A stretch of DNA of 64,000 nucleotides from Candidatus Binatia bacterium (GTDB lineage: Bacteria > Desulfobacterota > Binatia > Bin18). Position numbers and translations under genes: made by a program. Under the pieces are notes generated by a model. The model ran no database searches and was not told where the DNA came from. It saw nothing but the letters and a program-made list of their open reading frames with translations. Positions 6,702-31,326 of this stretch are shown here, piece by piece. The stretch lies in contig JAJDTY010000058.1 in the NCBI GenBank assembly GCA_022826945.1, forward strand, positions 1 through 64,000. The letters run 5' to 3'. Position 1 is the first letter of the stretch. Each line of letters opens with the position of its first letter.

Positions 6702-6755
6702 AAAGAGTACACGTGTCCTCCAATAGACAGGCAGAGGCTGGCACGTTTATTCTTT
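6702..6755. repeat. Palindromic dispersed element, copy 1
   Basis: A 54-bp sequence starting AAAGAGTACACGTGTCC and ending GCACGTTTATTCTTT, so its ends are near-complementary. Read on the minus strand it aligns closely with the copy at 29945, including a shared centre CTGCCTG.CTATTGGAGGAC. It begins one base after the PotD-like stop codon. The apparent GTG start of the next gene (6713) and its first 14 or so codons lie inside it. See copies at 15917, 29945 and 31272. Confidence 0.85.
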
Positions 6756-7936
6756 CCGGTCCACAGCTTCGCGCCGTAGGGCTGGTGCTGCCGCTGGTCG
6801 CCTTTATCGGGCTGACCTTTGTTGCGCCGCTGGCGACCATGCTGTCGCGCAGCGTGTACGACCCGGTAGTGGCTGATGCGCTACCCGAAACGCTGGGTCT
6901 GTTGCAGGATTGGGACGGTGTGCACGTCCCGCCCGAGCCGGCATTCGAGACGATCGCCCGCGAACTGCGCAAAGCACGTCAGGAGCGCACCCTGGGACGG
7001 GTCGCCACCCGTATCAACCGCGTGCACGGCGGACTGCGGAGCGTTATCACCCGCACGGCGCGGCGTGTACGCGAAGCGGAAGGTCCGTCGTGGCGCGGCG
7101 CGCTGGTCGGCATCCACGCGGCCTGGGACGATGTGCAAACCTGGCACGCGATTCGTTACGCCGGCGAGCGCTTCACTGCGCGCCACTATTTGCACGCCCT
7201 GGACCTGGAACGCCGAAGCGACGGCCGTATCGCTCCGCGACCGGACGAGTATCGCGTCTATCTGTCGCTGCTGTGGCGCACCCTGGTCGTGAGTCTGAGT
7301 CTGACCGGTCTGTGCCTGCTGCTCGGTTATCCGGTTGCCTATCTGATTGCCCATGCCCCGCCGCAACGGGCGAATCTCTTGTTGCTGCTGGTGCTAGTCC
7401 CATTCTGGACATCCTTGCTGGTGCGCACGACTGCCTGGATCGTCCTGCTCCAGACCCAGGGCGTGATCAACAGCATGCTCGTCGCGCTTGGCCTGATCGC
7501 CGACGATAGCCGCCTTGCCATGATCTACAATATGACCGGCACCATGGTTGCCATGACCCACGTCCTGCTGCCTTTCATGGTCCTGCCGCTGTACGCGGTC
7601 ATGCGTACTATACCGCAGCTGCATATGAGCGCAGCAGCGTCGCTGGGTGCAAGTACGATTCAGGCGTTTTGGCGGGTTTACTGGCCACAGACACTGCCCG
7701 GTGTTGGCGCAGGCTCGCTGTTGGTCTTTATCCTGGCGATTGGCTATTACATCACGCCCGCCCTAGTCGGCGGCCGGAGTGGTCAGCTCATTTCCAATAT
7801 GATCGCCTACCATATGCAGACTTCTCTGAACTGGGGACTGGCCGCGGCAATCGGCGGTCTGCTGCTGGCCTTCGTACTCGTGCTGTATCTGGTGTACGAC
7901 CGCTTGGTGGGAATCGAACGCATGAAGTTGGGTTGA
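6713..7936 (+). CDS. potB: ABC permease, PotB-like
   Basis: A 407-residue inner-membrane permease. The first membrane helix is near residues 23-43. A long hydrophilic insert of about 130 residues follows, and then the permease core with a further five helices. The conserved permease-ATPase coupling loop lies at AASLGASTIQAFWRVYWPQTLPG. Large inserts after helix 1 occur in some PotB-family subunits. The assigned GTG (6713) falls inside the palindromic element and has no clear ribosome-binding site. An in-frame GTG at 6785 would cut into helix 1, so the true start is uncertain. The following gene starts two bases after its stop. Confidence 0.85.
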   Translation: MSSNRQAEAGTFILSGPQLRAVGLVLPLVAFIGLTFVAPLATMLSRSVYDPVVADALPETLGLLQDWDGVHVPPEPAFETIARELRKARQERTLGRVATRINRVHGGLRSVITRTARRVREAEGPSWRGALVGIHAAWDDVQTWHAIRYAGERFTARHYLHALDLERRSDGRIAPRPDEYRVYLSLLWRTLVVSLSLTGLCLLLGYPVAYLIAHAPPQRANLLLLLVLVPFWTSLLVRTTAWIVLLQTQGVINSMLVALGLIADDSRLAMIYNMTGTMVAMTHVLLPFMVLPLYAVMRTIPQLHMSAAASLGASTIQAFWRVYWPQTLPGVGAGSLLVFILAIGYYITPALVGGRSGQLISNMIAYHMQTSLNWGLAAAIGGLLLAFVLVLYLVYDRLVGIERMKLG

Positions 7937-7937
7937 G

Positions 7938-8762
7938 ATGCCACCGAGAGGAGCCTGGGAGCGCGTCGGCCGGACTGCCTACCTGGCGTTCTGCACTGCG
8001 GTGTTCGTGTTTCTGATCGCGCCGATTGTGGTCATCGTCCCGCTCAGTTTTAACGTCGAACCTTATTTTACCTTTACCGAAGGGATGCTGCGTCTGGAGC
8101 CCGCGGCCTATTCGCTCCGCTGGTATCAGAATGTGATGGGCGACCCGGAGTGGCGGCACGCGCTGCTCAACAGCCTGTTCATCGGCCTGGCAGCCACCGT
8201 GCTGGCGACCACGCTTGGTACGCTTGCCGCCCTAGGGCTGACGCACCCTGCCCTGCCGGGCCGCTCGGCCATCATGGGCCTGCTGATCTCGCCGATGATC
8301 ACCCCGGTGATTATCTCGGCCGCGGGTATGTTCTTCTTCTACTCGAACCTGGGTCTGACGCAGACCCACCTGGGACTTATCCTGGCCCACGCCACGCTGG
8401 GCACACCGTTTGTCGTTATCACAGTAACCGCGACGCTGTCCGGTTTCGACCCCAACCTGTACCGTGCGGCGGCCAGTCTGGGCGCCGGGCCGCTACGGAC
8501 GTTCCGGCGCGTCGTGCTGCCGCTGATCGCCCCAGGCGTGATTTCCGGGGCCTTGTTTGCGTTTGCCACCTCGTTCGACGAAGTGGTGACCGTGCTGTTC
8601 ATGGGCGGCCTGGAACAGCGCACCGTGCCGCGCCAGATGTGGACCGGTATCCGTGAGCAGATCAGTCCGGCGATTCTGGCTGTGGCGACCCTGCTGATTG
8701 TCTTCTCCCTGCTGTTCATGCTGAGTGTGGAATGGCTGCGCCGGCGGGCGGGAACGCGCTAG
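7938..8762 (+). CDS. potC: ABC permease, PotC-like
   Basis: A 274-residue second permease with six hydrophobic segments. The N-terminus has a helix at about 12-35 followed by VPLSFNVEPYFTFT, common in PotC proteins. The EAA-type coupling loop is at YRAAASLGAGPLRTFRRVVLPLIAPG, and TSFDEVVTVLF is a conserved PotC segment. It completes the ATPase/binding protein/permease/permease set in the order A-D-B-C. The ATG lies one base after the upstream stop. Confidence 0.9.
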   Translation: MPPRGAWERVGRTAYLAFCTAVFVFLIAPIVVIVPLSFNVEPYFTFTEGMLRLEPAAYSLRWYQNVMGDPEWRHALLNSLFIGLAATVLATTLGTLAALGLTHPALPGRSAIMGLLISPMITPVIISAAGMFFFYSNLGLTQTHLGLILAHATLGTPFVVITVTATLSGFDPNLYRAAASLGAGPLRTFRRVVLPLIAPGVISGALFAFATSFDEVVTVLFMGGLEQRTVPRQMWTGIREQISPAILAVATLLIVFSLLFMLSVEWLRRRAGTR

Positions 8763-8874
8763 CCCAGCTCACCATCATCCGAGAAACAGGGGACTCGGGC
8801 AGCCGAGCGCAGCCCTCGTTTTGTAGTCGGTCGAGCTTGTAGACGGTGCGGAGATCAGGAACAATAGAAGCATC

Positions 8875-9852
8875 ATGCGTAAGAACCGACGGCGGGGGAG
8901 AGGTGGGAGAACGCAGTCCGGGGGGCAGAATCATCAGGCCCATAAGAGGCAGCGGGGACGGCGGAACGGCCCGCCCGGACCGTCAGCCGCGCTGCAAGAA
9001 TTTCAAAATCGGGTCCCCATCGCACCGAACCGGAAGATTCAGCTTGTTGGACCGGCTACGCCCCTGACGATTCGTATTCTGGATGTGTTCTGTCCGATTG
9101 GGTTTGGCCAGCGGGCCATTATCCTCGCGCCGCCTAAAACCGGTAAGACGACCTTCTTAAAAGACTTGTGTGTGGCGGCTGCGGCCGGGGCTCCGCAAGC
9201 CATCTTGTACAGCCTGCTGATTGACGAACGGCCCGAGGAAGTAACCGACTTTCGCCGGGCCGTCCCGGCTGAGGTATTTGCCTCGTCGAATGATCGTTCG
9301 CTGGAAGAACATCTGGAGACCGCCGCGACATGTCTGGAGCAGGCGGTTGAGAATGCCTTGCAGGATCAGGATGTGATCCTTGTCCTGGACTCGCTGACCC
9401 GTCTGGGCCGTGCCCACAATCTCAATACGGCCACCGGACGAACGATGAGCGGTGGGATTGATGCCAATGCGCTGGAAATCCCCAAGCGGTTGTTTGGGGC
9501 CGCCCGACAGCTTGAAGAAGGCGGCTCACTGACCATCGTCGCGACCTGCCTGGTTGACACGGGCAGTCGCATGGATGAGGTCATCGCCCAGGAGTTCAAG
9601 GGAACGGGCAATATGGAACTGCTGCTTGATAGACGCCTAGCCGACCGGCGGCTGTTCCCGGCTATTGATATTGCGGCCTCAGGCACCCGCAAAGAGGAAC
9701 AACTGCTCGATCCCGATACACTCAAAATGGCCCGCTTGCTGCGCCGTCAGGTTGCCGCGATGCCGACCGTAGAGGCAACCCAGGCGGTTTTGGCCGCCTT
9801 TGAGAAAGCGGAATCCAACGCCGCGATGGTGGCCCAGTTTGCAGCGGTCTGA
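8875..9852 (+). CDS. Rho-like hexameric ATPase lacking the RNA-binding domain
   Basis: A 325-residue protein whose residues 41-325 match the C-terminal motor of transcription terminator Rho. Visible motifs are P-loop APPKTGKTT (85-93), LLIDERPEEVT (114-124), DSLTRLGRAHN (172-182), the Q-loop-like GGIDANALEIPKR (193-205), EEGGSLTIVAT, DTGSRMDEVI, FKGTGNMEL and the arginine-finger segment SGTRKEE (269-275). Canonical Rho has about 420 residues. The N-terminal helical and cold-shock RNA-binding domains are missing here, replaced by a 40-residue Arg/Gly-rich basic tail. Homology begins exactly where the cold-shock domain ends. The start lacks a strong ribosome-binding site. It stands alone after the ABC operon and is probably a paralogue rather than the main Rho. 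Confidence 0.85.
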   Translation: MRKNRRRGRGGRTQSGGQNHQAHKRQRGRRNGPPGPSAALQEFQNRVPIAPNRKIQLVGPATPLTIRILDVFCPIGFGQRAIILAPPKTGKTTFLKDLCVAAAAGAPQAILYSLLIDERPEEVTDFRRAVPAEVFASSNDRSLEEHLETAATCLEQAVENALQDQDVILVLDSLTRLGRAHNLNTATGRTMSGGIDANALEIPKRLFGAARQLEEGGSLTIVATCLVDTGSRMDEVIAQEFKGTGNMELLLDRRLADRRLFPAIDIAASGTRKEEQLLDPDTLKMARLLRRQVAAMPTVEATQAVLAAFEKAESNAAMVAQFAAV

Positions 9853-9885
9853 CCCCCTGTCCCAAGGTATGCGTGGGTCTCCGCG

Positions 9886-10356
9886 TTAGTCCTCGACTTC
9901 CACAACCATTTCAATCTCAACGGCGATACCGAACGGGAGTTGGTTCATGCCCACGGCCGAGCGGGCATGCCGGCCGCGATCGCCAAACAGGGCGACGAGC
10001 AGGTCGGACGCGCCGTTGATCACTTTGGGCTGGTCGGGGAAGTCGGGCGTGCAGTTGACAAAGCCGAGCAGCTTGACCACTTTGCGGACTTTGTCCAAAT
10101 CCCCCAGTTCCTGCTTCATGGATTGCAGGATATTGAGCATGACCTGCTTGGCCGCATCATAACCCTGCTCAACGTCCAGGTCTTTGCCGAGCTTACCCTG
10201 GATGAACGACACGCTGCCATCCTTGAGGATGCCGGGCCCGTGGCCGGAGACAAACAGGAGGTTGCCGGTGCGCACCAGGGGCAGATAGTTGGCCACTGGG
10301 GTGGGAATGGGCGGCAGGGTCAGCCCGAGTTCTTCGAGTTTCTTTTCAGCTTCCAT
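9886..10356 (-). CDS. RidA/YjgF-family protein
   Basis: A 156-residue protein starting MEAEKKLEELG at 10356, with AAGGAG upstream on the minus strand. It has the RidA-family pattern: GNLLFVSGHGP, a helix around MLNILQSMKQELGDLDKV, and the closing HARSAVGMNQLPFGIAVEIE. RidA proteins deaminate reactive enamine/imine intermediates; this length and ending suit the YjgF-like subgroup that includes uncharacterised members. It is first in order of a minus-strand run only by position; the small membrane protein gene lies 19 bp upstream. Confidence 0.9.
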   Translation of the reverse strand: MEAEKKLEELGLTLPPIPTPVANYLPLVRTGNLLFVSGHGPGILKDGSVSFIQGKLGKDLDVEQGYDAAKQVMLNILQSMKQELGDLDKVRKVVKLLGFVNCTPDFPDQPKVINGASDLLVALFGDRGRHARSAVGMNQLPFGIAVEIEMVVEVED

Positions 10357-10375
10357 TACTGTCTCCTTTCGCACT

Positions 10376-10618
10376 TCAGTCTTGAGGAACAACACGCTCG
10401 TCCGGCGTGAGTTCTGGAAACGGATACTCGGCATACCGCGTCAGCAACTGCGGCAGAACCACGACCAGAAAGAAGAGCAGGACAATCACCAGGAACAGTA
10501 AGCGGAGCACTTTGCTGAGCGCAACGAGCAGGGCGATACCACCGCCCAGAAGAATCAATTGGACCTTGGACAGGCCGAGGAGCCAGTTCCAGGTCTCGGT
10601 AAACATCTCTGGGAGCAT
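10376..10618 (-). CDS. Small hypothetical membrane protein
   Basis: An 80-residue protein with a hydrophobic stretch covering about residues 20-60, probably two closely packed helices (IQLILLGGGIALLVAL region and LLFLVIVLLFFLVVVL). The acidic tail YPFPELTPDERVV would face the cytoplasm or periplasm. No family is recognised. It sits between the NnrU-like and RidA-like genes, with 12 and 19 bp gaps, so it is likely co-transcribed with them. Confidence 0.6.
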   Translation of the reverse strand: MLPEMFTETWNWLLGLSKVQLILLGGGIALLVALSKVLRLLFLVIVLLFFLVVVLPQLLTRYAEYPFPELTPDERVVPQD

Positions 10619-10630
10619 GGTGGGAATATC

Positions 10631-11323
10631 CTAGAGCGTCATCAAAATCCCGCCAAATATATCAGGGTGAAAGGTCCGCACCAGGTAGAATACCACGACG
10701 CCAAGGATAATCGCCCCCCAACGCAGCTCTCCAAGGGGAAACGGCTGCCGTTGGCTGACAATCGCCCCGAAGGGCAGGAAGGAGGTGGACAGCCGGAATT
10801 CTGTATAGCCGGGCAGCTCATCGGTTTTGCGTTGATCCTGACGCCATGCGCCAAGCCAGGAGTAGACAGCGAAACCGCCGAAGAAGACGATATCGCTCAG
10901 GGCGCCATTCACCAGGCAGTGCGCCACACCAAACAAAAAGAACGAGGCAAACACCGGGTGGCGGGTAATCCGGGTGATGCCATACGCCTGCGGTGCTTCG
11001 CTGGCCAGTATGGAGCTGGGCGTAAGGGCCGCCAGACCACTGACGAAGAGGACAAAGGCCAGCCCCATGAGCAAGACATTCACATCACGGGCTATCAGGT
11101 AGGGGAGCAGCGTAACCCAGAGCTGGGGGCCGGTGTGCTTGTGTGCGCCGTAGTACATACACAGTGGTACGATGGTGCCGATAGCAATCAGAGAATAGAC
11201 GCCGAAGAAGCCCCACTCACCAAGCCGGGCAACGAGTTTCGGTCGCCAGCCGGGCGCAGACATGAGCATGTGTGAGCCACCGAACAGCACCCACCACAGC
11301 AGAAGAATAAACGACTCTTTCAT
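10631..11323 (-). CDS. NnrU-family membrane protein
   Basis: A 230-residue multi-spanning protein starting MKESFILLLWWVLFGGSHM at 11323, preceded by GGAGACGGG. It shows the NnrU layout: an N-terminal helix ending in a conserved SH, then GEWGFFGVYSLIAIGTIVPL, and YGITRITRHPVFASFFLFG with the RHP and conserved His/Arg. NnrU-family proteins are linked by genetics to nitric-oxide metabolism in denitrifiers and are related to isoprenylcysteine methyltransferase-type membrane proteins. No other denitrification gene is nearby, so a role in NO metabolism is only a family-level suggestion. Confidence 0.8.
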   Translation of the reverse strand: MKESFILLLWWVLFGGSHMLMSAPGWRPKLVARLGEWGFFGVYSLIAIGTIVPLCMYYGAHKHTGPQLWVTLLPYLIARDVNVLLMGLAFVLFVSGLAALTPSSILASEAPQAYGITRITRHPVFASFFLFGVAHCLVNGALSDIVFFGGFAVYSWLGAWRQDQRKTDELPGYTEFRLSTSFLPFGAIVSQRQPFPLGELRWGAIILGVVVFYLVRTFHPDIFGGILMTL

Positions 11324-11445
11324 CCCGTCTCCACTAGCGTGCTGTCTATCTCCCGTCAATAATGAAGGGCGGAGAATCCGTTATAGACCGGCTCTCCGCC
11401 GTCGCCGGGGAGTGCTGGGGATTGGGAGCGTCTGTGGGGCGGCCT

Positions 11446-12447
11446 TCAGGCGTGCAGCTGTTTGAGTATCTCTTCTGCTTCGGACACGATGTCGCGCACG
11501 ATTTGACCGGCCGGCTTGATGTCATGGATCAACCGGCATGACTCGCCCGCGTACAGTGCGGTTTGTTCCAGGTCACCCGCAAAGCCGGGCATGGGCGGAA
11601 AAATACCGTATTTGGGTAGCTCTATGGATATGCCGGCCATGGGCATCGTCCCGATGACGTGGCCTTCTCCAGGCCGCTGACCGCTGGCCGGACAACCCGC
11701 GGCTTCCCATTCGTCCATCGCCGTAGTGTGTAACACCCTGTGAGCGGCATCTGGCCAGCCCACATCAAAGAGTTTGGTGTAGACCGTATCTTCTGCCGTG
11801 CTGTCAACAATGCGCTGTTTGTATGCCTGGATGACCTGGATTTCTTCACTGGCCACAAAGCGCGTGCCCATGGACACGGCCTGAGCGCCCAGGGTTAAGG
11901 CCGCCACAACCCCGCGTCCGGTGGCAATACCGCCCGCGGCAATAACCGGTACGGGTTCGACGGCTTCAACAACGGCCGGGACGATGGTTGACAGCGAGGT
12001 GGTGCTTTTGACATGCCCGCCCGCTTCAACACCCTGAGCGATAATACCGTCAACCCCGGCGTTCACCGCAGCCACCGCTTCTTCAACCGAGCCAACCTGG
12101 AGGAAGACCTTGGTCCCGACGCGATGGGCCTCTTTGACATAGGGTTCAGGGTCACCCCAGAAGAGGACGAGCAGGGGAACGGCCTCGGCGAAGCAGGTTT
12201 CGATCTGCCCCTCTTGCAACAAGGGAAGAATGATATTGACGCCAAAGGGCTGCGTGGTCAGCGTACGGACCTGCTGGATTTGTTCCTGGATAAAGGGCGC
12301 GGGCAGACCGCCCATACCCAAGACGCCGCACCCGCCGGCGTTGGACACCGCAGCGGTGAGTCGCGGTCCGGCCATCCCACCGCCCATACCCACGGAGAAA
12401 ATGGGATAGGTTATTCCGAGGTCCTGGCAGACTGGCGTGTGTAACAT
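11446..12447 (-). CDS. Nitronate monooxygenase / 2-nitropropane dioxygenase-like
   Basis: A 333-residue FMN-dependent TIM-barrel enzyme starting MLHTPVCQDLGITYPIFSVG with GGAGG upstream; longer readings run into the glutamine synthetase gene in another frame. Family features are MGGGMAGPRLTAAVSNAGG at the N-terminus, GVDGIIAQGVEAGGH (FMN phosphate region), PVIAAGGIATGRGV, and QAVSMGTRFVAS. Members oxidise alkyl nitronates, and some act on other substrates. It lies 46 bp downstream of glutamine synthetase in the same direction. Confidence 0.9.
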   Translation of the reverse strand: MLHTPVCQDLGITYPIFSVGMGGGMAGPRLTAAVSNAGGCGVLGMGGLPAPFIQEQIQQVRTLTTQPFGVNIILPLLQEGQIETCFAEAVPLLVLFWGDPEPYVKEAHRVGTKVFLQVGSVEEAVAAVNAGVDGIIAQGVEAGGHVKSTTSLSTIVPAVVEAVEPVPVIAAGGIATGRGVVAALTLGAQAVSMGTRFVASEEIQVIQAYKQRIVDSTAEDTVYTKLFDVGWPDAAHRVLHTTAMDEWEAAGCPASGQRPGEGHVIGTMPMAGISIELPKYGIFPPMPGFAGDLEQTALYAGESCRLIHDIKPAGQIVRDIVSEAEEILKQLHA

Positions 12448-12493
12448 AGCGATCCTCCGAGCGAGAGGGAATATAAAGGTGTTATCTCCAGGC

Positions 12494-13504
12494 TCAGCCG
12501 CACGTTGTTTCGAGCAGGGCAGCACACACCTGATAGGGATCCATATTGGCGGCCGGACGGCGGTCTTCCAAATAGCCGCGGCCCTCGTTGGCCGTGGCCA
12601 TTGGAATACGGACCGAGGCTCCCCGGTCACTGATGCCGTAGCGGAACTCGTGGATGCTACACGTCTCGTGCAGGCCAGTGAGGCGCTCTTCGTTGTGGGC
12701 ACCGTACACGGCAATATGTTCCTCATGCCGTTTTTCCAGCGCCTCGCAGGCGGCTCTCACCACCCGTAGGCCGCCCTCCCCGCGCATGGCCTTGGTGCTG
12801 AAATTGGTGTGGGCACCGGCGCCGTTCCAATCTCCCTTGACCGGTTTTGGATGCAGCGTGGCATTGACGCCGTAATCTTCGGCGATGCGATACAGCAGCC
12901 AGCGCGCGACCCACAATTGATCTGCCACCTCAGGAATGCCTCTTGGACCGATCTGAAATTCCCACTGTCCGGGCATGACCTCGGCATTGATGCCGGAGAG
13001 GGCCAGCCCGGCTTCCAGACAGGCATTCATATGGGCCTCAACAATATCTCGGCCAAAGACCTCATCGGCACCAACACCGCAATAGAACGGTCCCTGAGGC
13101 GCGGGATAGCCGCCCTCCGGCCAGCCCAGGGGCGAGCGGCCTCGGAAAAACGTATACTCCTGCTCAATGCCGAACCAGGGTTCGTGGTCTTTATACTTGT
13201 CTTGCAGCTTAACCAGATGGGCTCGCGTGTTGGACTCGTGCACGGATCCATCCGGGAGCCGAACCTCGTTCATGACCAGGATGTTGTCACCGCGGCGGAT
13301 GGGGTCAGGCGCATAATAAATGGGGCGGAGCAGGCGATCACTGTCATGCCCTTCGGCCTGCATGGTGCTCGAACCGTCGAATCCCCACAGGGGAACGTCC
13401 TCAAGGCTGCTAACGGGTCCGTCAAGTATTTTCGTTTTTGAGCGTAACGTGGCAGTCGGTTTGTTGCCATCGATCCAAATATACTCGGCTCTGATGAGAC
13501 TCAT
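12494..13504 (-). CDS. glnII: Glutamine synthetase type II
   Basis: A 336-residue enzyme making glutamine from glutamate, ammonia and ATP. It is the short, eukaryote-like GSII form rather than the roughly 470-residue GSI. The start MSLIRAEYIWIDG at 13504 has AAGGAG upstream. Diagnostic segments are LWGFDGSSTMQAEGHDSD, WFGIEQEYTFF, INAEVMPGQWEFQIGP, GDWNGAGAHTNFSTKAMR, and RIPMATANEGRGYLEDRRP near the end. No adenylylation motif of GSI is expected or seen. Bacterial GSII genes often sit beside a GSI elsewhere in the genome. Confidence 0.95.
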   Translation of the reverse strand: MSLIRAEYIWIDGNKPTATLRSKTKILDGPVSSLEDVPLWGFDGSSTMQAEGHDSDRLLRPIYYAPDPIRRGDNILVMNEVRLPDGSVHESNTRAHLVKLQDKYKDHEPWFGIEQEYTFFRGRSPLGWPEGGYPAPQGPFYCGVGADEVFGRDIVEAHMNACLEAGLALSGINAEVMPGQWEFQIGPRGIPEVADQLWVARWLLYRIAEDYGVNATLHPKPVKGDWNGAGAHTNFSTKAMRGEGGLRVVRAACEALEKRHEEHIAVYGAHNEERLTGLHETCSIHEFRYGISDRGASVRIPMATANEGRGYLEDRRPAANMDPYQVCAALLETTCG

Positions 13505-13659
13505 TTCACGTTCTCCTTTCTTCAAGATACCCTCGCTGGAAGAAGTAACTGATAGTTATATTCTCTTCCCATCTCAACCCCACGGAAGTGTAACCAAGGT
13601 GGAGAGCAAGTTCAATTATGGGACGGGGGCACATCCCAGAGCGCTGCTCCCTCATCCCT

Positions 13660-14802: not shown

Positions 14803-14809
14803 AGTCCAC

Positions 14810-15883: not shown

Positions 15884-15916
15884 GGGCGTCCTCCTGTCTT
15901 ATGTTGATGGTCCAGA

Positions 15917-15970
15917 AAAGAGTACACGTGTCAACATCTGCATGTTTACTGGCGGACACGTTTACTCTTT
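15917..15970. repeat. Palindromic dispersed element, copy 2
   Basis: A 54-bp inverted repeat with arms AAAGAGTACACGTGTC and GGACACGTTTACTCTTT, complementary except at one position. It overlaps the end of the HAD gene: on the minus strand the element's AAAGAGTAA provides the last two codons (Lys-Glu) and the TAA stop. The plus-strand end runs into TTTTT, so it could also fold as a terminator. It is a member of the four-copy family at 6702, 29945 and 31272. Confidence 0.9.
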
Positions 15971-23496: not shown

Positions 23497-23497
23497 G

Positions 23498-24811
23498 TCA
23501 GGCAAACCTGTCTTCCCAATTGTCCAGCAGGACAAAACGGCCTTCGTCAACAACGGTATAGTAGACTTGTTGTAGCCCCTGGCGACGGTCGGGACCGAAG
23601 GAGGCCCGCTCGTCAATGCCCAAATCGAAATCCTGAACGGTGAAGACCGCCTGCTGGAGTTGGCTCCGTTCCGGTCTGTCCCCAAGCCGGCGCAAAATTT
23701 CAACCATCAATTTGGCGTCGATAAATCCTTCGAGGCTGACGAAGCTATGCTCGGAGGGCAGGTAGGGTTCCTTCAGCAGTTCTAGGGGTGGCTGCGGGTT
23801 ATAGCGGCGCATCAGGTCGCGATACTCTTTGATGGCGGGCATGGAGGCCTCTTCGTAGCTCGGAACCACTTGGGAGTTGACGAGGAGTCGCGTGTACTGC
23901 TCGCTGTTGCCACGCTCCTCGGTAAGCGCCCAGTGAGTGAGGAGTTTCAAGAGATTCTCGCTCCCAACAAAGGACAGGTTGGCAATCGGGACTTGCAGGC
24001 CGAGGTTGACGGCATCGCGGACAAAGGCCGCACAGGCCGCGTAGGAACCGATACAGATTACTGCTTCGGGCTGTGACGCCTTGAGGATTTCGACCTGCCT
24101 ACGCATGCTGGCGGTGAACTTTGTGCCACGACGGTAGGTCGCCTCGCCCGCAATCTGTCTTCCGTAGTGCTTCAAGGCACGCCTGACGCCCGCCCACCCG
24201 CTACGCCCATAAGCATCGGCTTGATAGAATACGGCGATACGTTTTCGGTTGATGCGCACGAAATTATCGACCAGACCAGCGGTTTCCTGGCGATAGGAGG
24301 AGCGCAGATTGAACGCAAAGTCGCCATAGGGAGGTTCCCGTTGCGGCTGGGCACCGGTGAAGGGAAAAAACAAAAAGAAATTCCGGTCCTGGAACTTCTT
24401 GAGCATAGGGAGGACACGCGTGACCGTTGGGGTGCCAACGTAGCCGAAGAGCAGGAACACCTGGTCTTGCAGCATCAGCTTCAGGGTATTCCGAACAGAA
24501 GGGGCAGGTTGGTAGCCGTCGTCATACGTTTTGAGCGTCACGTTGCGGCCGGCGATTCCTCCCCGCTCATTCACATGGTCGAAGTAAGCACTGGCACCAC
24601 GATACAGTTCGATACCTAACCCCCGGGATGGTCCGGAGAAGGCGGCGGACATGCCCAGAACAATCTCGGTGTCGGTCACGCCGGGTGCCATCTGCGGGGC
24701 AGGTTGGTCGGCGTCGGTATCAGCGTCCGCCCTCAGGGGCTTCAGCCAGGGGGCGACCGCGCACCAAGCAAGACCGGAACGGAGCAGCGCTCTCCTCGTT
24801 ATTGTTCTCAT
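23498..24811 (-). CDS. Tat-exported branched-chain-type ligand-binding protein
   Basis: A 437-residue type I periplasmic-binding-fold protein. The start at 24811 (GAGG upstream) gives MRTITRRALLRSGLAW, a twin-arginine-like signal, then TDTEIVLGMSAAFSGPSRGLG, the LivJ-type opening, and YDDGYQPAPSVRNTLKLM, RIAVFYQADAYGRSGWAG further on. No permease or ATPase is nearby. It is one base from the Cache/HAMP gene, so it more likely feeds ligand information to that protein than an importer. Confidence 0.85.
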   Translation of the reverse strand: MRTITRRALLRSGLAWCAVAPWLKPLRADADTDADQPAPQMAPGVTDTEIVLGMSAAFSGPSRGLGIELYRGASAYFDHVNERGGIAGRNVTLKTYDDGYQPAPSVRNTLKLMLQDQVFLLFGYVGTPTVTRVLPMLKKFQDRNFFLFFPFTGAQPQREPPYGDFAFNLRSSYRQETAGLVDNFVRINRKRIAVFYQADAYGRSGWAGVRRALKHYGRQIAGEATYRRGTKFTASMRRQVEILKASQPEAVICIGSYAACAAFVRDAVNLGLQVPIANLSFVGSENLLKLLTHWALTEERGNSEQYTRLLVNSQVVPSYEEASMPAIKEYRDLMRRYNPQPPLELLKEPYLPSEHSFVSLEGFIDAKLMVEILRRLGDRPERSQLQQAVFTVQDFDLGIDERASFGPDRRQGLQQVYYTVVDEGRFVLLDNWEDRFA

Positions 24812-24891
24812 GGTATCCTCATCTTTACGCTCAGGTTCCAATCGGTACAGAGGATTTGATGTTCATACGCGCCCACTCCCAAGAAGAACGG

Positions 24892-26232
24892 TCAGGCCGA
24901 GACGGCCGCGTCGGTAATATCGAGCGCCTGGTCAATAATGGCCAATCCCTCGCGGAGTTGTTCTTCGCTAATACACAGAGGCGGATTGACAAAAAAAGTG
25001 TTCCAGCGAACGAGGGTGAAAAGCCCGTTCTCTCGAAAGAACGCACCGAGCTGAGCCATGGCCCCCATCTCGGCAGCCGTCGCGTTAAAGGGGGCCAGGG
25101 GCTCACGTGTCTGGCGGTTTTTGACCAGCTCGAACAGGCCAAACAGGCCGATGGAGCGGGTCTCTCCAACCGAGGGATGCTTCTTCCGTAAGCGTTCCAT
25201 CTCGTGCGTCAGAACGGTCCCCATTTTTTTAGTATGCTCGATCAGACCGTCTTCCTGGTAGACCTTGATGGTGGCAACCGCAGCGGCACAGGAGACAGGA
25301 TGCGCCCCATAGGTCAACCCGGAATACAGGAAGTTGTCTTCAAAATGGGCCGCGATCTCATCGTTCACCATAATGGCCCCAAGCGGCAAGTAGGCGCTCG
25401 TTAAGCCCTTTGCCACCGTCATGATGTCAGGCACGACATCCCAGTGATCGACCGCAAACCACTCCCCCGTCCGGCCAAAGCCGCTCATGACCTCATCGGC
25501 TATCAGTAGGATGCCATATTTATCACACAGGGTGCGTAGCCCCCGCAGATAGCCGTCGGGCGGGATGATGATGCCGTTCGTGCCAGTCACGGTCTCAATC
25601 AGCACGGCAGCAATCGTGTGCGCACCCTCAAACTGGATGACATCTTCGACATGATTCAAGCAGTCGAGATTGCAGGCTGACTGCTCCTGGCACCAGCGGC
25701 ATCGATAGCGGTAGGGGTCCATGGCCCGTACAACCCCGGGGATACCGGGTTCAGCCCCCCAGCGGCGCGGCTCTCCGGTCAGGCTGACGGCCCCGGCTGT
25801 TGCGCCGTGATAGGAACGATAGCGGACAAGAATCTTCTGCCGCTGAGTGGCCAAGCGAGCAATCCGTACGGCATGCTCATTTGCCTCCGCTCCGCTCAGC
25901 GTCAGAAAAGATCGTTTGAGGGCACCAGGACTGACCTCGGCCAGGAGTTGATGCAGCCTGGCCCGCGGCTCGGTCACAAGATGCGGCATCACATAGGCCA
26001 GCTTTTCGGATTGCTCCCGAATGGCGGTCAGAACACGCTCATCACCGTGGCCAATATTGACGCACATCAGTTGCGAGTTGAAGTCAAGAAAACGTTGACC
26101 GTCGACCGTCCAGAAGTAGACGCCCTGAGCGTGGTCAACGCTGAGTGGCTTCACCGCCTTCTGCGCCGCCCATTCGTAAAGGCCGTACTCCCGAGTCAGG
26201 CGTAAAATCTCGGCAGAGGAGAGGTCGCTCAT
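24892..26232 (-). CDS. Class III (PLP-dependent) aminotransferase
   Basis: A 446-residue enzyme of the fold-type I aminotransferase class III. LTLSGAEANEHAVRIARLAT binds cofactor phosphate, SYHGATAGAVSLTGEPRR follows, LLIADEVMSGFGRTG holds the PLP Asp, and DIMTVAKGLTSAYLPLGA contains the Schiff-base Lys. A Cys-rich loop (CRWCQEQSACNLDC) interrupts the middle, as in several members of this class. Amino donors may be taurine, beta-alanine, omega-amino acids or similar; no choice can be made from sequence. AGGAG precedes the start. Confidence 0.9.
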   Translation of the reverse strand: MSDLSSAEILRLTREYGLYEWAAQKAVKPLSVDHAQGVYFWTVDGQRFLDFNSQLMCVNIGHGDERVLTAIREQSEKLAYVMPHLVTEPRARLHQLLAEVSPGALKRSFLTLSGAEANEHAVRIARLATQRQKILVRYRSYHGATAGAVSLTGEPRRWGAEPGIPGVVRAMDPYRYRCRWCQEQSACNLDCLNHVEDVIQFEGAHTIAAVLIETVTGTNGIIIPPDGYLRGLRTLCDKYGILLIADEVMSGFGRTGEWFAVDHWDVVPDIMTVAKGLTSAYLPLGAIMVNDEIAAHFEDNFLYSGLTYGAHPVSCAAAVATIKVYQEDGLIEHTKKMGTVLTHEMERLRKKHPSVGETRSIGLFGLFELVKNRQTREPLAPFNATAAEMGAMAQLGAFFRENGLFTLVRWNTFFVNPPLCISEEQLREGLAIIDQALDITDAAVSA

Positions 26233-26381
26233 ATGCGTCTCCTGTTTCTATCCGTCGCGCTGCATTCGTCGTCGTCCCGATGCCAGTGATAATAGCTATA
26301 CCGAACGAAAAAAGCGAGAAACGAGGCGACTGGTCCCCCACAGACCGGGATGCTATGTCGGGGGGCATACAGGAGGGAGAT

Positions 26382-27089
26382 ATGACGCGCACAAAAAGAG
26401 GCAGATTCGTTGCTCTGGCCGGACTCATGGGGGCTGTGTTTGTTTGTACGCCCCTCGGAGTACAGGGACAAGAAGCGCAGAACACGAACACCGTCACCGT
26501 TCTGCTTGAAGGCTATGTCAAGCCGATAGAAGGGCGACAGCCCATGCCCGGTGTGGCTGATGACGGAGCCAGACATGTGGCGGGTACGGTTGCCCTGGTC
26601 CGAGGCGAGAGTGTCACGCTGGTCGCCGACCCCGGCATGGTTGCAGAACGATCGCTCATCCTTGACGCACTGAAAAAAGAAGGCGTCTCAGCTGAGGATG
26701 TCACCCATGTCTTTATCAGCCATCACCATCCCGACCATACCGTGAATATTGCCCTCTTCCCCAAGGCCCGACTGGTCGATTTTTGGGCGACGTATACGGG
26801 CGACCTGTGGGAAGATCATGGAGATGCGTATGTCATTGCGCCCGGCATACGTGTGATACAAACTCCAGGACATACTGAAGAAGACGCGTCGCTGGTCGTC
26901 GAGACGGCACAGGGGACCTATGTCCTGACCCATACCTGGGCATTCCCGGACATCATGCCCGGAGACGCCCCACTGACCTGGAACCAAGAGGCCCTCAATG
27001 CGAGTCGAGAGAAGGTTTTACAGATCGCCGACTGGATTATCCCCGGTCACGGCAAGATGGTGCCCAACCCGAAGAAGGGAAAAGACTAG
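26382..27089 (+). CDS. Secreted metallo-beta-lactamase-fold hydrolase
   Basis: A 235-residue protein starting MTRTKRGRFVALAGLMG at 26382 with AGGAGGGA upstream; the first 29 residues form a signal peptide (likely cleavage after VQGQ). HHHPDHT (114-120) is the HxHxDH zinc site, GHTEEDASLVVET and WIIPGHGKMV supply further His ligands. It resembles the MBLAC1-like branch. Its substrate is not apparent. It is transcribed opposite to its neighbours, with 149 bp shared upstream with the aminotransferase. Confidence 0.85.
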   Translation: MTRTKRGRFVALAGLMGAVFVCTPLGVQGQEAQNTNTVTVLLEGYVKPIEGRQPMPGVADDGARHVAGTVALVRGESVTLVADPGMVAERSLILDALKKEGVSAEDVTHVFISHHHPDHTVNIALFPKARLVDFWATYTGDLWEDHGDAYVIAPGIRVIQTPGHTEEDASLVVETAQGTYVLTHTWAFPDIMPGDAPLTWNQEALNASREKVLQIADWIIPGHGKMVPNPKKGKD

Positions 27090-27142
27090 GGATAGTCGAG
27101 CGGTCATCCGTAGCCGGAGGGTGGTTGTTGCCGCCCCCTAGG

Positions 27143-27904
27143 CTAGAAATTCTTGAGTCGTTCGGTTGTTTCCGGATCGAGAAAACTGGCAACGGTCGCC
27201 TCTGTTTCCAGTCGAAGTGCGGTGTTGATGTCACTCACCGCGCACTGATTGAGCACACGCTTCATCGCTCGTACGGCAAGAGGCGGAAGGCTACTCAGTT
27301 TCTCCGCTACACTGTGCGCCTCTGCGAGCAGACGATCATCGGTAACGACGCGCCACGCCACACCCAGGTCCAGCAGGGTGCGGGCGTCATATTGTTCGCC
27401 CAGAAACAGCATTTCTCGGGCTTTGTTTAGCCCAACCAGGGCCGGTAAAAGCGATGAGACGGCCCCCGTCACAAAAGCGTTAAGCGACACTTCAGGGAAA
27501 AACCCTCGGGCGCTTTCTGCCCAGATCGGGAAATCACAATTGATCGCCAACTCAAACCCACCCCCAACTGCCCAACCGTTAATGGCCCCCACCACCGGTT
27601 TCCCACCAAAGACAATCGCCAGGGTCGCCCGCTGGACCGCGTCCACGGCATCTCTGGCCTCCCCCTCGTTTTCAGGCTGGCGATGTGCCTTACGGTCATC
27701 GCCAGCACAAAAGGCTCGGCCCTGGCCAGTAAAAATGATGGCTCGGGTCTCTGGATCGGCATTGGCTTCGTCAAATGCGCGTGCAATATCGACCATGAGC
27801 TTCCCGTTCATGGCGTTCAGGCGCTCGGGTCGGTTCAGGGCTATGGTGCGGACCCCACTGTCGCCCAGCGTGCTCAGAACGGTTTCATATTGAAAAGTGT
27901 CCAT
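27143..27904 (-). CDS. Enoyl-CoA hydratase/isomerase family protein
   Basis: A 253-residue crotonase-fold enzyme. IALNRPERLNAMNGKLM opens the fold, IIFTGQGRAFCAGDDRKA includes one oxyanion-hole segment, and GAINGWAVGGGFELAINCD the second. The catalytic Glu region reads FPEVSLNAFVTGAVSSLLP. The final ALRLETEATVASFLDPETTE helix is family-typical. Substrate uncertain (enoyl-CoA hydration, isomerisation or hydrolysis). GGAGGAAG precedes the ATG. Confidence 0.9.
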   Translation of the reverse strand: MDTFQYETVLSTLGDSGVRTIALNRPERLNAMNGKLMVDIARAFDEANADPETRAIIFTGQGRAFCAGDDRKAHRQPENEGEARDAVDAVQRATLAIVFGGKPVVGAINGWAVGGGFELAINCDFPIWAESARGFFPEVSLNAFVTGAVSSLLPALVGLNKAREMLFLGEQYDARTLLDLGVAWRVVTDDRLLAEAHSVAEKLSSLPPLAVRAMKRVLNQCAVSDINTALRLETEATVASFLDPETTERLKNF

Positions 27905-28055
27905 ATCGCTTCCTCCCGCTATGTTTCATTTTTTCCCACGTTCTTGAAGAGAGGTCCGACGACACTCTGGGTAACCTGAACGTGCACGTCCAATCAAGAA
28001 CACCGGGCAATCTTTTCTCACGGATGCCTCTTGAGGTACAAGGAAACAGGGAAGA

Positions 28056-28355
28056 ATGATGTATTGCCAAAAAGCCCGGATTGTGGAGCCGGAGAGTTGG
28101 GACAGGATCCACCCGGACTCGCACGCCTGGGTTCGTCAGCATCGTGGGGCAGAGTTATGGGTGGAGGCCACTCCTCCTCAGGGCACCCACCCGGCCCTTC
28201 ACGGCGGCATGGTGAGCAATTCGGTGAGAACACCGTATTTGTGGCACGGACGTATTCGCTACCGGATGTCGCTCGACGTGCTTGAACTCTTACCCGAGAG
28301 CGCTGACGTGCCGGATCAACCCTTACCGGACTGGATAGACGCACTGCACACATGA
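28056..28355 (+). CDS. Hypothetical protein
   Basis: A 99-residue protein beginning MMYCQKARIVEPESWDR, preceded by AGGGAAG. It is hydrophilic, with several Trp and His residues (HPDSHAWVRQHRGAELWV, TPYLWHGRIRYRM). No known domain is recognised and no signal or membrane segment is present. The next small gene starts 15 bp after it, so the two are probably co-transcribed. Confidence 0.55.
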   Translation: MMYCQKARIVEPESWDRIHPDSHAWVRQHRGAELWVEATPPQGTHPALHGGMVSNSVRTPYLWHGRIRYRMSLDVLELLPESADVPDQPLPDWIDALHT

Positions 28356-28370
28356 TACGAGTTCTCAACA

Positions 28371-28571
28371 ATGACGCGGGATGAAGAGATTCGGCAGGAC
28401 TTGGAGCGGCAGTGGGCGAAACTCGAAGGGCTGCCGCACCCGACGATTACGGGTCTCTCCCGGTGTTCCTGTGGCCACCCGGCTCTGGTACATGAACACG
28501 CCTGGACCGGCCACTGTCGCATCAGTCTGTGCGGTTGTCACCAGTTCACCGCAATACAGAAAGACCGGTAG
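28371..28571 (+). CDS. Small Cys/His-rich hypothetical protein
   Basis: A 66-residue protein with an N-terminal helix (TRDEEIRQDLERQWAKLEG) and a compact cluster of metal-ligand residues: RCSCGHPALVHEH, then GHCRISLCGCHQF. Five Cys and several His could bind one zinc ion or more. The function is unknown. It follows another small hypothetical gene by 15 bp. No clear ribosome-binding site, which lowers confidence. Confidence 0.5.
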   Translation: MTRDEEIRQDLERQWAKLEGLPHPTITGLSRCSCGHPALVHEHAWTGHCRISLCGCHQFTAIQKDR

Positions 28572-28709
28572 TCACCCGCTGTCTGGAATCGGCGATCCGC
28601 CCAGCACGGCTTTGTTTGCTCTTGTCAAATAACGCATACTCCGAGCAGTAAGATGGGGAGACACCGCCTGCTCTTCTCATTTGAGAAGGAGTACGGTAGG
28701 ACAGCTGGT

Positions 28710-29942
28710 ATGCAGACAATAGCACGCTGGATACTCGTAAGTGTTGGAGTATGTATTTGCGGCGTAACCCTGGCGCAAACAGACAGAACTGCTGAACTGC
28801 GCGCGCGGGCCGAGGCCGGTGACGTCGAGGCGCAGTACGACCTCGCCTTCCTGTACGATAACGGCTACGGCGTCGTACAAGATTACACCGAAGCCGGGGT
28901 ATGGTATCGCAAAGCCGCCGAGCAGGGCCATGCGACGGCCCAGTGGAACTTGGGGGTCATGTACGCCAACGGTCTGGGCGTGGCAGCGGATATGGACACA
29001 TCGATAGCGTGGTATCGCAAAGCCGCCGAGCAGGGCCATGTGACGGCCCAGTACGATCTGGGCATTCTATACTCATCGGGCAAGGGAATTGAGCAAGATG
29101 ACGTCCAGGCATTGCTCTTGATCAACCAGGCGGCCGATAGCGCGGCCAAGCTAGCTGTTTATAAAGGCGACCGTGATTCATTCAATGCCGCCAAAGCAAC
29201 CGCCGCGAAATACGCCGGTGCCCGCGATAATCTGATTGCACGGATGACGATTGCCCAGCTCACCCAATCGGCCGAGCAAGGCATCATGCATGCCCAGGCA
29301 GAATTGGGCATACTCTACGGCCTGGGCCAACGCGTTGACCAGGATGCGACCCAAGCGCTGCAATGGCATCGCCAGGCCGCCGAACAGGGCTCTCCGCAAT
29401 CGCTCTATTTTATGGGGCTCCACTACTACACGGGCCAAGGTGTGGCACAGGATGCGGCCGAGGCCGCCAAGTGGTATCGCCAAGCGGCTGACCAGGGCCA
29501 TGCCGACGCACAGTGGAATTTGGGGCTCATGTATCGCACCGGCCAAGGCGTGGCACAGGACGCGGCCGAGGCCGCCAAGTGGTATCGCCAAGCGGCCGAC
29601 CAGGGTCACGCCCAAGCCCAGATCAATCTGGGATTCATGTATGCAACCGGGCAAGGGGTCGAACAGAACGACACCCAGGCGGCGAATTGGTATCGTCGGG
29701 CGGCCAATCAAGATGATGCCCAGGCGCAGTATAATCTGGCGCTACGCTATGCCAGGGGCCAGGGTACGCCGCTGGACTATGGCCAAGCCTATATGTGGAT
29801 CAGGCTGGCGGAGACAAATGCCTCGGACGAGCACAAGAATGCCGTGCTCGAAGTGCGTGGGTATATCGTTGAGCTTATGGAACCTGAGCAGATTGAGGAA
29901 GGAGAAGAACTCTTTCGTAAGCGACAACGTTCGAGTTCTTGA
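28710..29942 (+). CDS. Secreted Sel1-like repeat protein
   Basis: A 410-residue protein with a signal peptide (MQTIARWILVSVGVCICGV, cleavage near LAQ) and eight Sel1/TPR-like repeats of about 36 residues. Each has the pattern AEQGH..AQ.NLG.MY..G.GV..D...A..WYR.A. Three repeats lie before and five after an irregular helical insert (about residues 130-175). Two of the later repeats are nearly identical, suggesting recent internal duplication. Sel1 proteins scaffold protein complexes; partners are unknown. The stop is two bases before palindromic element copy 3. Confidence 0.85.
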   Translation: MQTIARWILVSVGVCICGVTLAQTDRTAELRARAEAGDVEAQYDLAFLYDNGYGVVQDYTEAGVWYRKAAEQGHATAQWNLGVMYANGLGVAADMDTSIAWYRKAAEQGHVTAQYDLGILYSSGKGIEQDDVQALLLINQAADSAAKLAVYKGDRDSFNAAKATAAKYAGARDNLIARMTIAQLTQSAEQGIMHAQAELGILYGLGQRVDQDATQALQWHRQAAEQGSPQSLYFMGLHYYTGQGVAQDAAEAAKWYRQAADQGHADAQWNLGLMYRTGQGVAQDAAEAAKWYRQAADQGHAQAQINLGFMYATGQGVEQNDTQAANWYRRAANQDDAQAQYNLALRYARGQGTPLDYGQAYMWIRLAETNASDEHKNAVLEVRGYIVELMEPEQIEEGEELFRKRQRSSS

Positions 29943-29944
29943 AC

Positions 29945-29999
29945 AAAGAGTAAACGTGTCCAGCATCTGCCTGCCTATTGGAGGACCCGTTTACTCTTT
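29945..29999. repeat. Palindromic dispersed element, copy 3
   Basis: A 55-bp copy with arms AAAGAGTAAACGTGTCC and GGACCCGTTTACTCTTT (one mismatch) around the centre AGCATCTGCCTGCCTATTG... It starts two bases after the Sel1-repeat gene stop codon. It is the best reference copy: copies 1 (reverse), 2 and 4 align to it end to end. Confidence 0.9.
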
Positions 30000-30107
30000 C
30001 TAGCCAACACGCTCAAGGCGAAGTGTTCTTCTGAGTCGGGCGCTTCGCTTGCGCTGTCCAAGGACAGAAGTCAGTTCGGCTTGAGTGCCAAAAAAAGGAG
30101 GATGTGC

Positions 30108-31280
30108 ATGCCCGGCCCTGAAGCCTTACCGAGTCTCCCCATGTCAGGCGTGATCGATGCCGACGGTCATATACTCGAAGCGCCCGACCTCTGGGAAAAA
30201 TATCTGGAACCCAAATACCGTAGCCGCGCGGTCCGCATTCGGAAGGACGACGACGGCCTGGAATATCTTGAGGTCAACGGTCGGCCATCCAAAATGACGC
30301 GTAAGGGCGCACCCTCGGGGCTTGGTGTGATGGACCAGCTTGGGGGTATTGAGTATAAACGCGAGCCGACCGGGTCTGGCTATGTTGATAATGCCTCGTT
30401 TGGCTCTATGGATCCGAAAGAGCGGCTGCAACGTCTGGACATTGAGAATATTGAAAAGGTGTTTCTCTACCCCACTCTTGGCCTGTTGTGGGAACCCGAA
30501 TGCGAAGACCTCGAGCTGTCGATGGCCTATGCCCGGGCGTATAATCGCTGGCTGGTGGATTTTTGCTCAGACTCGGATGGACGCCTGCTCCCCATTGCCC
30601 ATATCCCCATTAGTATCCCCGAGCTTGCTGAAGCAGAGCTGCGCCGGGCGGCCAAGGATGGGATGAAGGGCTTTTTTGTGGCTCCGTATATCTGGAGCCG
30701 AAAGGCCCATGGCCATCCCGATCATGACCGCGTGTTTGCCGCGGCCCAAGAGCTCGGTCTGCCGTTTGGCATTCACCCGTCGTTTGAGCCCCACTGGGCG
30801 GCCCCAACCCGCTTTGGTCGGATGACGAGTTTTTCGACCGCGTTTTACCAAAACATCTCTGGCGGGGACGCCATTCGAGGCGGCTTTGTCTCGCTCTTTC
30901 AGTATGGGGTGTTCGATAAATTCCCACAGCTTAAAGTCATTGTCCTGGAGGTGGGCGCGGGCTGGATCGGGTACTGGCTGGAACGCATGGATGCGGTCTA
31001 CGACTCGCCGCTGGGCAAAAGTGTGCTGCTGAAAGACAAACCGAGCGAGTATTTCCGCCGACAGTGTTGGATCTCGGGCGACCCGGATGAACGTTCACTC
31101 GCCGGGGTCATCCCCTTTGTTGGAGAGGATCGATTTTTCTGGGCCAGCGATTTTCCGCATGCCGACCATCCACCCGAATATGTTCCCAATTTGATTGAAC
31201 TCACAAACCTGATGGCCGAATCGGCCCGAGAGGGCATATTGGGAAAGAACGTGCTGAAGTGCTACGGCATGAAAGAGTAA
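30108..31280 (+). CDS. Amidohydrolase family 2 (metal-dependent TIM barrel)
   Basis: A 390-residue enzyme. SGVIDADGHILEAPDLWEKY carries the family's DxDxH opening, FGIHPSFEPHW supplies another His ligand, and FFWASDFPHADHPPEY contains the catalytic Asp. This branch includes decarboxylases and hydrolases related to ACMSD. The start at 30108 is favoured by AGGAGG six bases upstream; a TTG at 30081 is also in frame. The final codons AAA GAG TAA come from palindromic element copy 4. Confidence 0.9.
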   Translation: MPGPEALPSLPMSGVIDADGHILEAPDLWEKYLEPKYRSRAVRIRKDDDGLEYLEVNGRPSKMTRKGAPSGLGVMDQLGGIEYKREPTGSGYVDNASFGSMDPKERLQRLDIENIEKVFLYPTLGLLWEPECEDLELSMAYARAYNRWLVDFCSDSDGRLLPIAHIPISIPELAEAELRRAAKDGMKGFFVAPYIWSRKAHGHPDHDRVFAAAQELGLPFGIHPSFEPHWAAPTRFGRMTSFSTAFYQNISGGDAIRGGFVSLFQYGVFDKFPQLKVIVLEVGAGWIGYWLERMDAVYDSPLGKSVLLKDKPSEYFRRQCWISGDPDERSLAGVIPFVGEDRFFWASDFPHADHPPEYVPNLIELTNLMAESAREGILGKNVLKCYGMKE

Positions 31281-31326
31281 ACGTGTCCAGCTTTGTCTGT
31301 ATTGATAGAGGACTCGTTTGCTCTTT
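31272..31326. repeat. Palindromic dispersed element, copy 4
   Basis: A 55-bp copy with arms AAAGAGTAAACGTGTCC and GGACTCGTTTGCTCTTT (two mismatches), and a diverged centre. It supplies the last two sense codons (Lys-Glu) and the TAA stop of the amidohydrolase gene, exactly as copy 2 does for the HAD gene. Confidence 0.88.

What the first reader, a model, noticed from the sequence alone, without database searches (positions are those of the whole stretch)
6702..31326. Four-copy palindromic element of 54-55 bp, each at a gene stop codon
Copies at 6702-6755, 15917-15970, 29945-29999 and 31272-31326 share near-complementary 17-bp arms (AAAGAGTAAACGTGTCC / GGACACGTTTACTCTTT), and a partly conserved centre. 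All four begin at, or within three bases of, the stop codon of a gene. Copies 2 and 4 supply the last two codons (Lys-Glu) and TAA. This points to a non-autonomous REP/MITE-like element that inserts at gene ends or carries its own in-frame stop. It may double as a terminator. I know of no named family with these arms.
Basis: seen in the sequence. Interest (0 to 1): 0.72.

Follow-up and report, generated by a model that had tools for sequence, protein, structure and literature searches.

The report
Tiny mobile DNA hairpins that flip
The four palindromes belong to a family of tiny (about 54-base) mobile DNA hairpins, dozens to well over a hundred per genome in one group of uncultured bacteria; they insert without copying host bases, often supply a gene's stop signal, and at many sites their middles have flipped over in place.

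Summary
Observation confirmed: four 54-55 bp copies, each at a stop codon. They belong to a family with 97 places found in the 4.7 Mb genome. It is in all 7 genomes of the genus and both examined of a sister genus, and in 0 of 49 other relatives. Named carriers are Binatia/Binatota MAGs. At 42 of 145 loci another genome has no element; 22 of 42 show no net gain or loss of host bases, so no target duplication. A directional motif, roughly KCCNN^NYMBCV, marks the insertion point. Of 141 loci, 49 have a stop codon within -9 to +4 bp of the border; in 26 the element supplies AAA GAG TAA. In 10 of 28 multi-allele loci the same core lies in opposite orientations: inversion in situ, with arm homogenisation, as polymerase template switching predicts. 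Pairing shows no RNA-level selection. Five enzyme families that could move it were not found in the own genome or in single-contig carrier G006. Best reading: a new REP/MITE-like mobile hairpin family, neither a REP nor a classical MITE, mobiliser unknown.

The parts
6702..6755 (+). Copy 1, 54 bp, core orientation +; one base behind the TGA (6698-6700) of the upstream ORF
   Evidence: locus also occupied in G004, G005 and the sister-genus genome G007; no element in G001 and G003; G002 and G006 not covered
15917..15970 (-). Copy 2, 54 bp, core orientation -; supplies Lys-Glu-TAA to the minus-strand ORF ending at 15962
   Evidence: orthologous locus occupied in all six genomes covered (G000, G001, G003-G006), core inverted in G003 and G006, orientation unclear in G001
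29945..29999 (-). Copy 3, 55 bp, core orientation -; two bases behind the TGA of ORF 28653-29942
   Evidence: no element at the site in G001, G002, G003, G005, G006, where 13-26 flanking bases are also unaligned; G004 not resolved
31272..31326 (-). Copy 4, 55 bp, core orientation -; supplies Lys-Glu-TAA to the ORF ending at 31280
   Evidence: same orientation in G001 and G005, inverted in G004 with an identical oriented core
5576..5577 (.). Empty target site 18 bp before the end of ORF 4485-5594; its orthologues in G001, G003, G004 and G005 carry the element, in both core orientations

Best explanation
A non-autonomous mobile DNA hairpin: two 17-bp arms (AAAGAG[T/G]AAACGTGTCC and its complement) around a ~20-bp asymmetric core (CTCCA...GCTGG). 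SHOWN by comparison: it is dispersed in many copies in two related genera (about 40-150 per genome if arm counts are halved), is present or absent at orthologous sites with no target-site duplication, and sits at a directional target motif that is also present in empty alleles. Copies are found mainly in intergenic gaps and at gene 3' ends, where the T-type arm supplies Lys-Glu-TAA in one frame. SHOWN: between relatives the core is inverted in place and changes appear on both arms together, with break points inside the arms. INFERRED: the flipping and homogenisation come from replication template switching at the hairpin; insertion needs an enzyme, unidentified, possibly acting on a single-stranded hairpin. 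No host function is shown; selfish or neutral spread is the default.
For: Copy number and controls. Restriction to two genera: 9 of 58 genomes; 0 of 296 other genomes in a phylum draw, 19 candidates scored each; no exact match in viral contigs; no match in plasmids or phages. Loci without element in another genome: 42 of 145, net 0 bp in 22 of 42 and +/-1 in 10 of 42; 11 loci have a fully exact junction. Occupied in one lineage with exact empty junctions in four others at coordinate 30799 of the G001 stretch. Target motif log-likelihood 234 against 54-93 in 10 random sets; at the true junction in 6 of 11 exact empty alleles, 0 of 11 one base to either side. Flips: 10 of 28 multi-allele loci; oriented cores identical in 5 of 10 and within 2 edits in 9 of 10, against a mean of 7.8 edits between random loci. 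Outer-arm mismatches stay while the core flips in 4 loci. Complementary double changes on both arms: 11 cells at 6 loci, where about 1.6 double changes of any kind are expected by chance. Template switching gives both arm homogenisation and spacer inversion in yeast (PMC8604942, passages read).
Against: No mobilising enzyme was found. Some empty alleles look like losses: at copy 1 the sister-genus genome G007 is occupied while G003 has an AAAAATTTT, remnant-like junction. 10 of 42 empty loci have net differences of 5 or more bases, and one of the 42 (L100) is a paralogous repeat in the same record. Flank repeats of 1 bp (45 against 33 shuffled) and 3 bp (6 against 2.4) are somewhat in excess. 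7 further double arm changes are not complementary and 69 changes hit one arm only. Template switching is inferred from products only. The genomes with titles are all MAGs. Core orientation was assigned by my own score on two short motifs.
Confidence: 0.72

Rival explanations
1. REP/REPIN: a hairpin moved by a RAYT (Y1 tyrosine transposase).
For: Dispersed, mostly outside genes, next to stop codons and able to supply one, as reported for GTAG REPs (PMC3733652, passages read). G001, G002 and G004 have 1-2 Y1 matches over the cut-off.
Against: No Y1_Tnp match at E<=0.001 in G000, G003, G005, G006, G007, all carriers. No element arm in the three fetched loci of Y1 hits in carriers (L213, L215, L216; the second G002 hit was not fetched). 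No GTAG/CGTC tag. Stem 17 bp against 5-13 bp in that paper's table.
Confidence: 0.08
2. Classical MITE: deletion derivative of an insertion sequence with the same terminal repeats and a DDE transposase.
For: Terminal inverted repeats, many copies, presence/absence differences.
Against: No target duplication at exact junctions. Only 10 solo arms in 1.99 Mb, several of them truncated half-elements by eye, and no two of them frame a 0.5-4 kb stretch.
Confidence: 0.1
3. Functional RNA hairpin: terminator or mRNA stabiliser kept by selection on the transcript.
For: Stable consensus fold, -25 to -27 kcal/mol, z about -7 (copy 1 itself only -16.9, z -2.8); sits after stop codons.
Against: On the transcribed strand A.C mismatches (62) are as common as G.U pairs (53) over 107 loci; no T tract follows; 17 of 141 loci lie inside called reading frames; element-free alleles are common.
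Confidence: 0.07
4. Invertible switch: a dedicated site-specific recombinase moves the element and flips the core.
For: Inversion is frequent (10 of 28 loci) and bounded by inverted repeats.
Against: Break points lie at different places inside the arms: between positions 9 and 17 at copy 2's locus, and position 14 both kept and flipped at copy 4's locus, unlike a fixed cut site. A 20-bp spacer is very short for a recombinase synapse (general knowledge). No serine recombinase match in 5 of 7 genus genomes. Tyrosine recombinases were not searched.
Confidence: 0.08

Closest known systems
REP / REPIN elements (GTAG and CGTC superfamilies)
   Same: Small dispersed palindromes, predominantly downstream of coding regions and able to supply a stop codon (PMC3733652, passages read)
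   Different: No tag, longer stem (17 bp), asymmetric ~20-bp core, no Y1 match in 5 of 8 carriers searched
Small dispersed repeats of cyanobacteria (Elhai et al. 2008)
   Same: Very small mobile repeats without a known transposase (recalled; one search listed only papers that cite the work)
   Different: Sequence and host phylum; I recall no target motif or core inversion for them
Yeast mitochondrial GC clusters such as GC42
   Same: 42-nt mobile palindromes with presence/absence differences and an unsettled mechanism (PMC4478555, passages read)
   Different: GC clusters are flanked by AG or ACT repeats like a target duplication; here there is none
Template-switch spacer inversion and arm homogenisation at short inverted repeats
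   Same: Both products are seen here; described in yeast genes (PMC8604942, passages read) and as hairpin inversions in plastomes (PMC9653739, passages read)
   Different: There scattered native repeats, with 2-5 bp spacer changes in yeast; here one mobile family with ~20-bp cores shows it at 10 of 28 comparable loci

Membership tests
REP/REPIN | Dedicated RAYT (Y1 transposase) in the genome | tested here: not met
   No PF01797 match at E<=0.001 in 5 of 8 carrier genomes searched, including single-contig G006; 1-2 matches in the other three
REP/REPIN | GTAG or CGTC tetranucleotide at one end | tested here: not met
   Positions 1-4 outward from the ends have no base above 46% over 145 loci
REP/REPIN | High-copy, mostly extragenic palindrome | tested here: met
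   97 places; 17 of 141 loci inside called frames
MITE | Terminal inverted repeats | tested here: met
   17-bp arms, 93.7% of pair cells standard in 31 copies that were themselves picked by arm similarity
MITE | Target-site duplication | tested here: not met
   Net 0 bp in 22 of 42 loci, 11 fully exact junctions; slight excess of 1-bp and 3-bp flank repeats over shuffles
MITE | Related autonomous element with the same ends | tested here: inconclusive
   None in 1.99 Mb from seven genomes; whole genomes not scanned for arm pairs at a distance
Element moved by IS110, serine recombinase, RT or IS91-type Y2 enzyme | Enzyme family present in carriers | tested here: not met
   Genus genomes with a match: PF01548 1 of 7, PF00239 2 of 7, PF00078 5 of 7, PF04986 0 of 7; none of the four in G000 or G006. 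PF04986 rang in none of the 14 control genomes but in 3 of the 4 class relatives
Intrinsic terminator | Stem followed by a T tract | tested here: not met
   T is at most 32% at the three bases after the element's own TTT; the scan could not see a ~20-base loop
Known Rfam RNA family | Match above gathering score | tested here: not met
   0 matches in the window
Cyanobacterial small dispersed repeats | Sequence family membership | not tested
   Sequences not held; comparison is from recall

The most novel reading that the evidence does not exclude
A distinct class of bacterial mobile hairpin that transposes without target duplication into a directional ~12-bp motif by a mechanism outside the five enzyme families tested (perhaps insertion of a single-stranded hairpin at the replication fork by an unrecognised enzyme), and that, by carrying its own long inverted repeat and asymmetric core, works as a natural recorder of template switching in a bacterial genome.
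Probability: 0.3. Interest if true: 0.78.

Novelty: new variant of a known kind. Interest (0 to 1): 0.58.

Why it matters
It shows a very small mobile element spreading in genomes where the usual candidate enzymes were not found, and gives many copies with a built-in orientation marker, so that hairpin template switching in bacteria can be counted from genomes. It also warns that covarying stems ('compensatory changes') can arise at DNA level: here pairing is kept without any sign of RNA selection.

Tried and rejected
RAYT/REP link: rejected as a requirement. IS110, reverse transcriptase, serine recombinase and Y2 families: no match in G000 or single-contig G006; these four searches did not include the sister genus, and an enzyme lost after spreading, or a divergent one, cannot be excluded. 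Tyrosine recombinases and DDE families were not searched. Autonomous partner with the same ends: none in 1.99 Mb. RNA-level selection: G.U 53 against A.C 62, p 0.46. Strand links (p): target motif against local GC skew 33 opposite, 19 same (p 0.07); motif against transcription 51 opposite, 31 same (p 0.04); core orientation against transcription 51 same, 30 opposite (p 0.03). All uncorrected and possibly composition effects, so not used. Local hopping: 6 of 17 pairs under 1 kb have cores within 4 edits against 11% background, and neighbours within 3 kb are about twice the random number or more in 5 of 6 contigs but on counts of 2-5: only suggestive. Literature: no title or abstract start in the listings concerns this family; the library holds open-licence papers only.

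Limits: gene calls are from my own simple caller. Elements with under 80 bp of flank were left out of the orthology work (so the flipped pair L137/L035 seen is not among the 10), matches under 60 bp were ignored there (so G002 at copy 4 is not counted), and loci with under 500 bp of flank were left out of the context count (141 of 145 kept). 272 entries, many redundant, were collapsed to 145 loci by flank alignment. In 13 rows orientation was ambiguous. 'Net 0' includes loci with equal unaligned bases on both alleles; only 11 are exact, and alleles with more than 12 extra bases were not called empty. The motif EM took the best of 12 starts for the data and of 4 for each control. In one search a few shifted positions also passed the 95% level (1, 2 and 1 of 11 at +2, +3, +4).
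Full report
Observation. The four copies are real, at the stated places, far beyond chance (8 arm matches against 0.03 expected), and each abuts or contains a stop codon. They are a sample of a family. The arm at up to 3 mismatches occurs 180 times in the 4.71 Mb genome against 5 for the reversed pattern. A covariance model built from 31 copies gives 146 rows at E<=1 that collapse to 97 distinct places; 150 candidates were scored, so this is a lower bound. Arm counts at up to 2 mismatches are 146-302 in the seven genomes of the genus, 81 in a sister-genus genome, and 0-2 in 12 other relatives, the control level.

Distribution. With the model, 9 of 58 genomes carry it: 7 of 7 of the genus (own included), 2 of 2 of one sister genus, 0 of 7 from other genera of the family and 0 of 42 from the class (at most 99 candidates scored per genome). 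In a phylum draw of 297 genomes only the own genome matched (19 candidates scored each). An exact scan of the GTDB r220 species genomes for near-perfect copies found 62 stretches, all in six MAG sets titled Binatia, Binatota or, in one case, Desulfurellaceae bin18. None in viral contigs, plasmids or phages.

Anatomy. The consensus is AAAGAGTAAACGTGTCCTCCA-ATAGACATG-AGATGCTGGACACGTTTACTCTTT. Of 145 loci, 85 copies are 54 bp and 34 are 55 bp long. Arm position 7 is T-A in 91 and G-C in 38 of 145 loci. The core is asymmetric, so each copy has an orientation.

Mobility. In 1.99 Mb of stretches from seven genomes plus fetched loci, 272 element entries collapse to 145 loci. For 42 loci another sequence has no element: in 22 the net change is 0 bp, in 10 it is +/-1, and in 10 it is 5 or more; one of the 42 (L100) is a paralogous repeat. 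Eleven junctions are fully exact; examples are aligned. Flank repeats are only slightly above shuffles (1 bp: 45 against 33; 3 bp: 6 against 2.4; 4 or more: none). Occupancy in one lineage with several exact empty relatives (coordinate 30799 of the G001 stretch) points to insertion. At copy 1, occupancy in the sister genus and a remnant-like junction in G003 point to loss. So both happen.

Target. An orientation-free EM on the rejoined flanks of 145 loci gives a motif close to KCCNN^NYMBCV with near-exclusion of A at -6 and -4 and of T at +6; log-likelihood 234 against 54-93 for ten random sets. In 11 empty alleles with an exact junction, leave-one-out scores pass the random 95% level in 6 at the true junction and in 0 one base to either side. 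The motif is therefore present without the element. Core orientation relative to the motif is even: 30, 27, 27, 27.

Gene ends. Of 141 loci with enough flank, 26 have the stop at exactly -9, that is AAA GAG TAA read from the element; 10 share 1-3 bases of the stop with the border; 13 have the stop 0-4 bp before it (9%, against 0.5% of random points and 3% of random intergenic points); 17 lie inside a called reading frame. All 26 at -9 are T-type, and no T-type copy lies inside a gene in that frame, as the in-frame TAA requires. Of the 42 element-free sites, 17 are within 30 bp of a called stop, against 6.3% of random points. Selection against damage plus a self-supplied stop could explain this without a special affinity for stop codons (inference).

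Inversion in place. Of 28 loci with at least two distinct alleles, 10 show both core orientations between the same flanks. The core is the locus's own: identical after orientation in 5 of 10, within 2 edits in 9 of 10, and 6 edits at copy 2's locus; random loci differ by 7.8 edits on average and 22% of random pairs by 5 or fewer. One of the ten (G004 C22:48020) has the commonest core and is weaker evidence. In 4 loci an outer-arm mismatch (position 1, 8, 9 or 14) stays in place while the core flips; in 3 loci inner mismatches flip. So in those loci the whole element was not cut out and put back. Changes also appear on both arms together: 11 complementary double cells at 6 loci, for example T-A against G-C at copy 2's locus and at L069/L081, besides 7 other double cells and 69 one-arm changes; about 1.6 doubles are expected by chance. 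Some cells repeat one event.

Mechanism. Arm homogenisation with spacer inversion is the product pair that Abraham and Hazkani-Covo attribute to polymerase template switching in yeast (PMC8604942, passages read). Plastome authors describe small hairpin inversions as common (PMC9653739, passages read). RNA-level selection is not needed: on the transcribed strand A.C mismatches number 62 and G.U 53 over 107 loci. For insertion I infer an enzyme because of the motif. Families that could move an element without target duplication (my choice, from general knowledge) gave no match in G000 or in single-contig G006: Y1, IS110, serine recombinase, Y2 and reverse transcriptase. Other carriers have some of them: Y1 in G001, G002 and G004, reverse transcriptase in G001-G005, serine recombinase in G003 and G004, IS110 in G002. 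Tyrosine recombinases and DDE families were not searched. A lost or divergent enzyme remains possible.

Comparison and verdict. It works like REPs, small dispersed repeats and yeast GC clusters, but fails tests that define REPs (tag, RAYT) and MITEs (target duplication). I file it as a new variant of the mobile-palindrome kind, with an unknown mobiliser and an unusually clear record of hairpin inversion.

Noticed in passing
window 1-1874: CRISPR-like array: 29 repeats at 61-bp spacing, then two copies of a different 34-bp repeat at 1769-1874.
   Followed up: no
window 28849-29668: Internal direct repeats of about 142 bp within the ORF that ends at copy 3.
   Followed up: no
L112 near 3797-3851 against L087 1501-2450: The stretch between two neighbouring elements in G001 is missing in G003, with one element left at the joint: deletion (or insertion) between copies.
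   Followed up: partly
L033, L034, L100: Several copies sit inside another repeated palindrome-like sequence (gccgctacgcggcac / ccctccaaggagggg), perhaps a second dispersed repeat family.
   Followed up: no
G000 contig C67 (L170-L178): 23 copies in 174 kb, about one per 7.5 kb, against one per 49 kb over the whole genome.
   Followed up: no
L115, L009, L068, L101: Neighbouring loci (0.5-2.6 kb apart) share similar cores, hinting at local spread.
   Followed up: partly
G003 orthologue of copy 1: The element-free junction reads AAAAATTTT, like a remnant of the outer arm ends: possible loss through the hairpin.
   Followed up: partly
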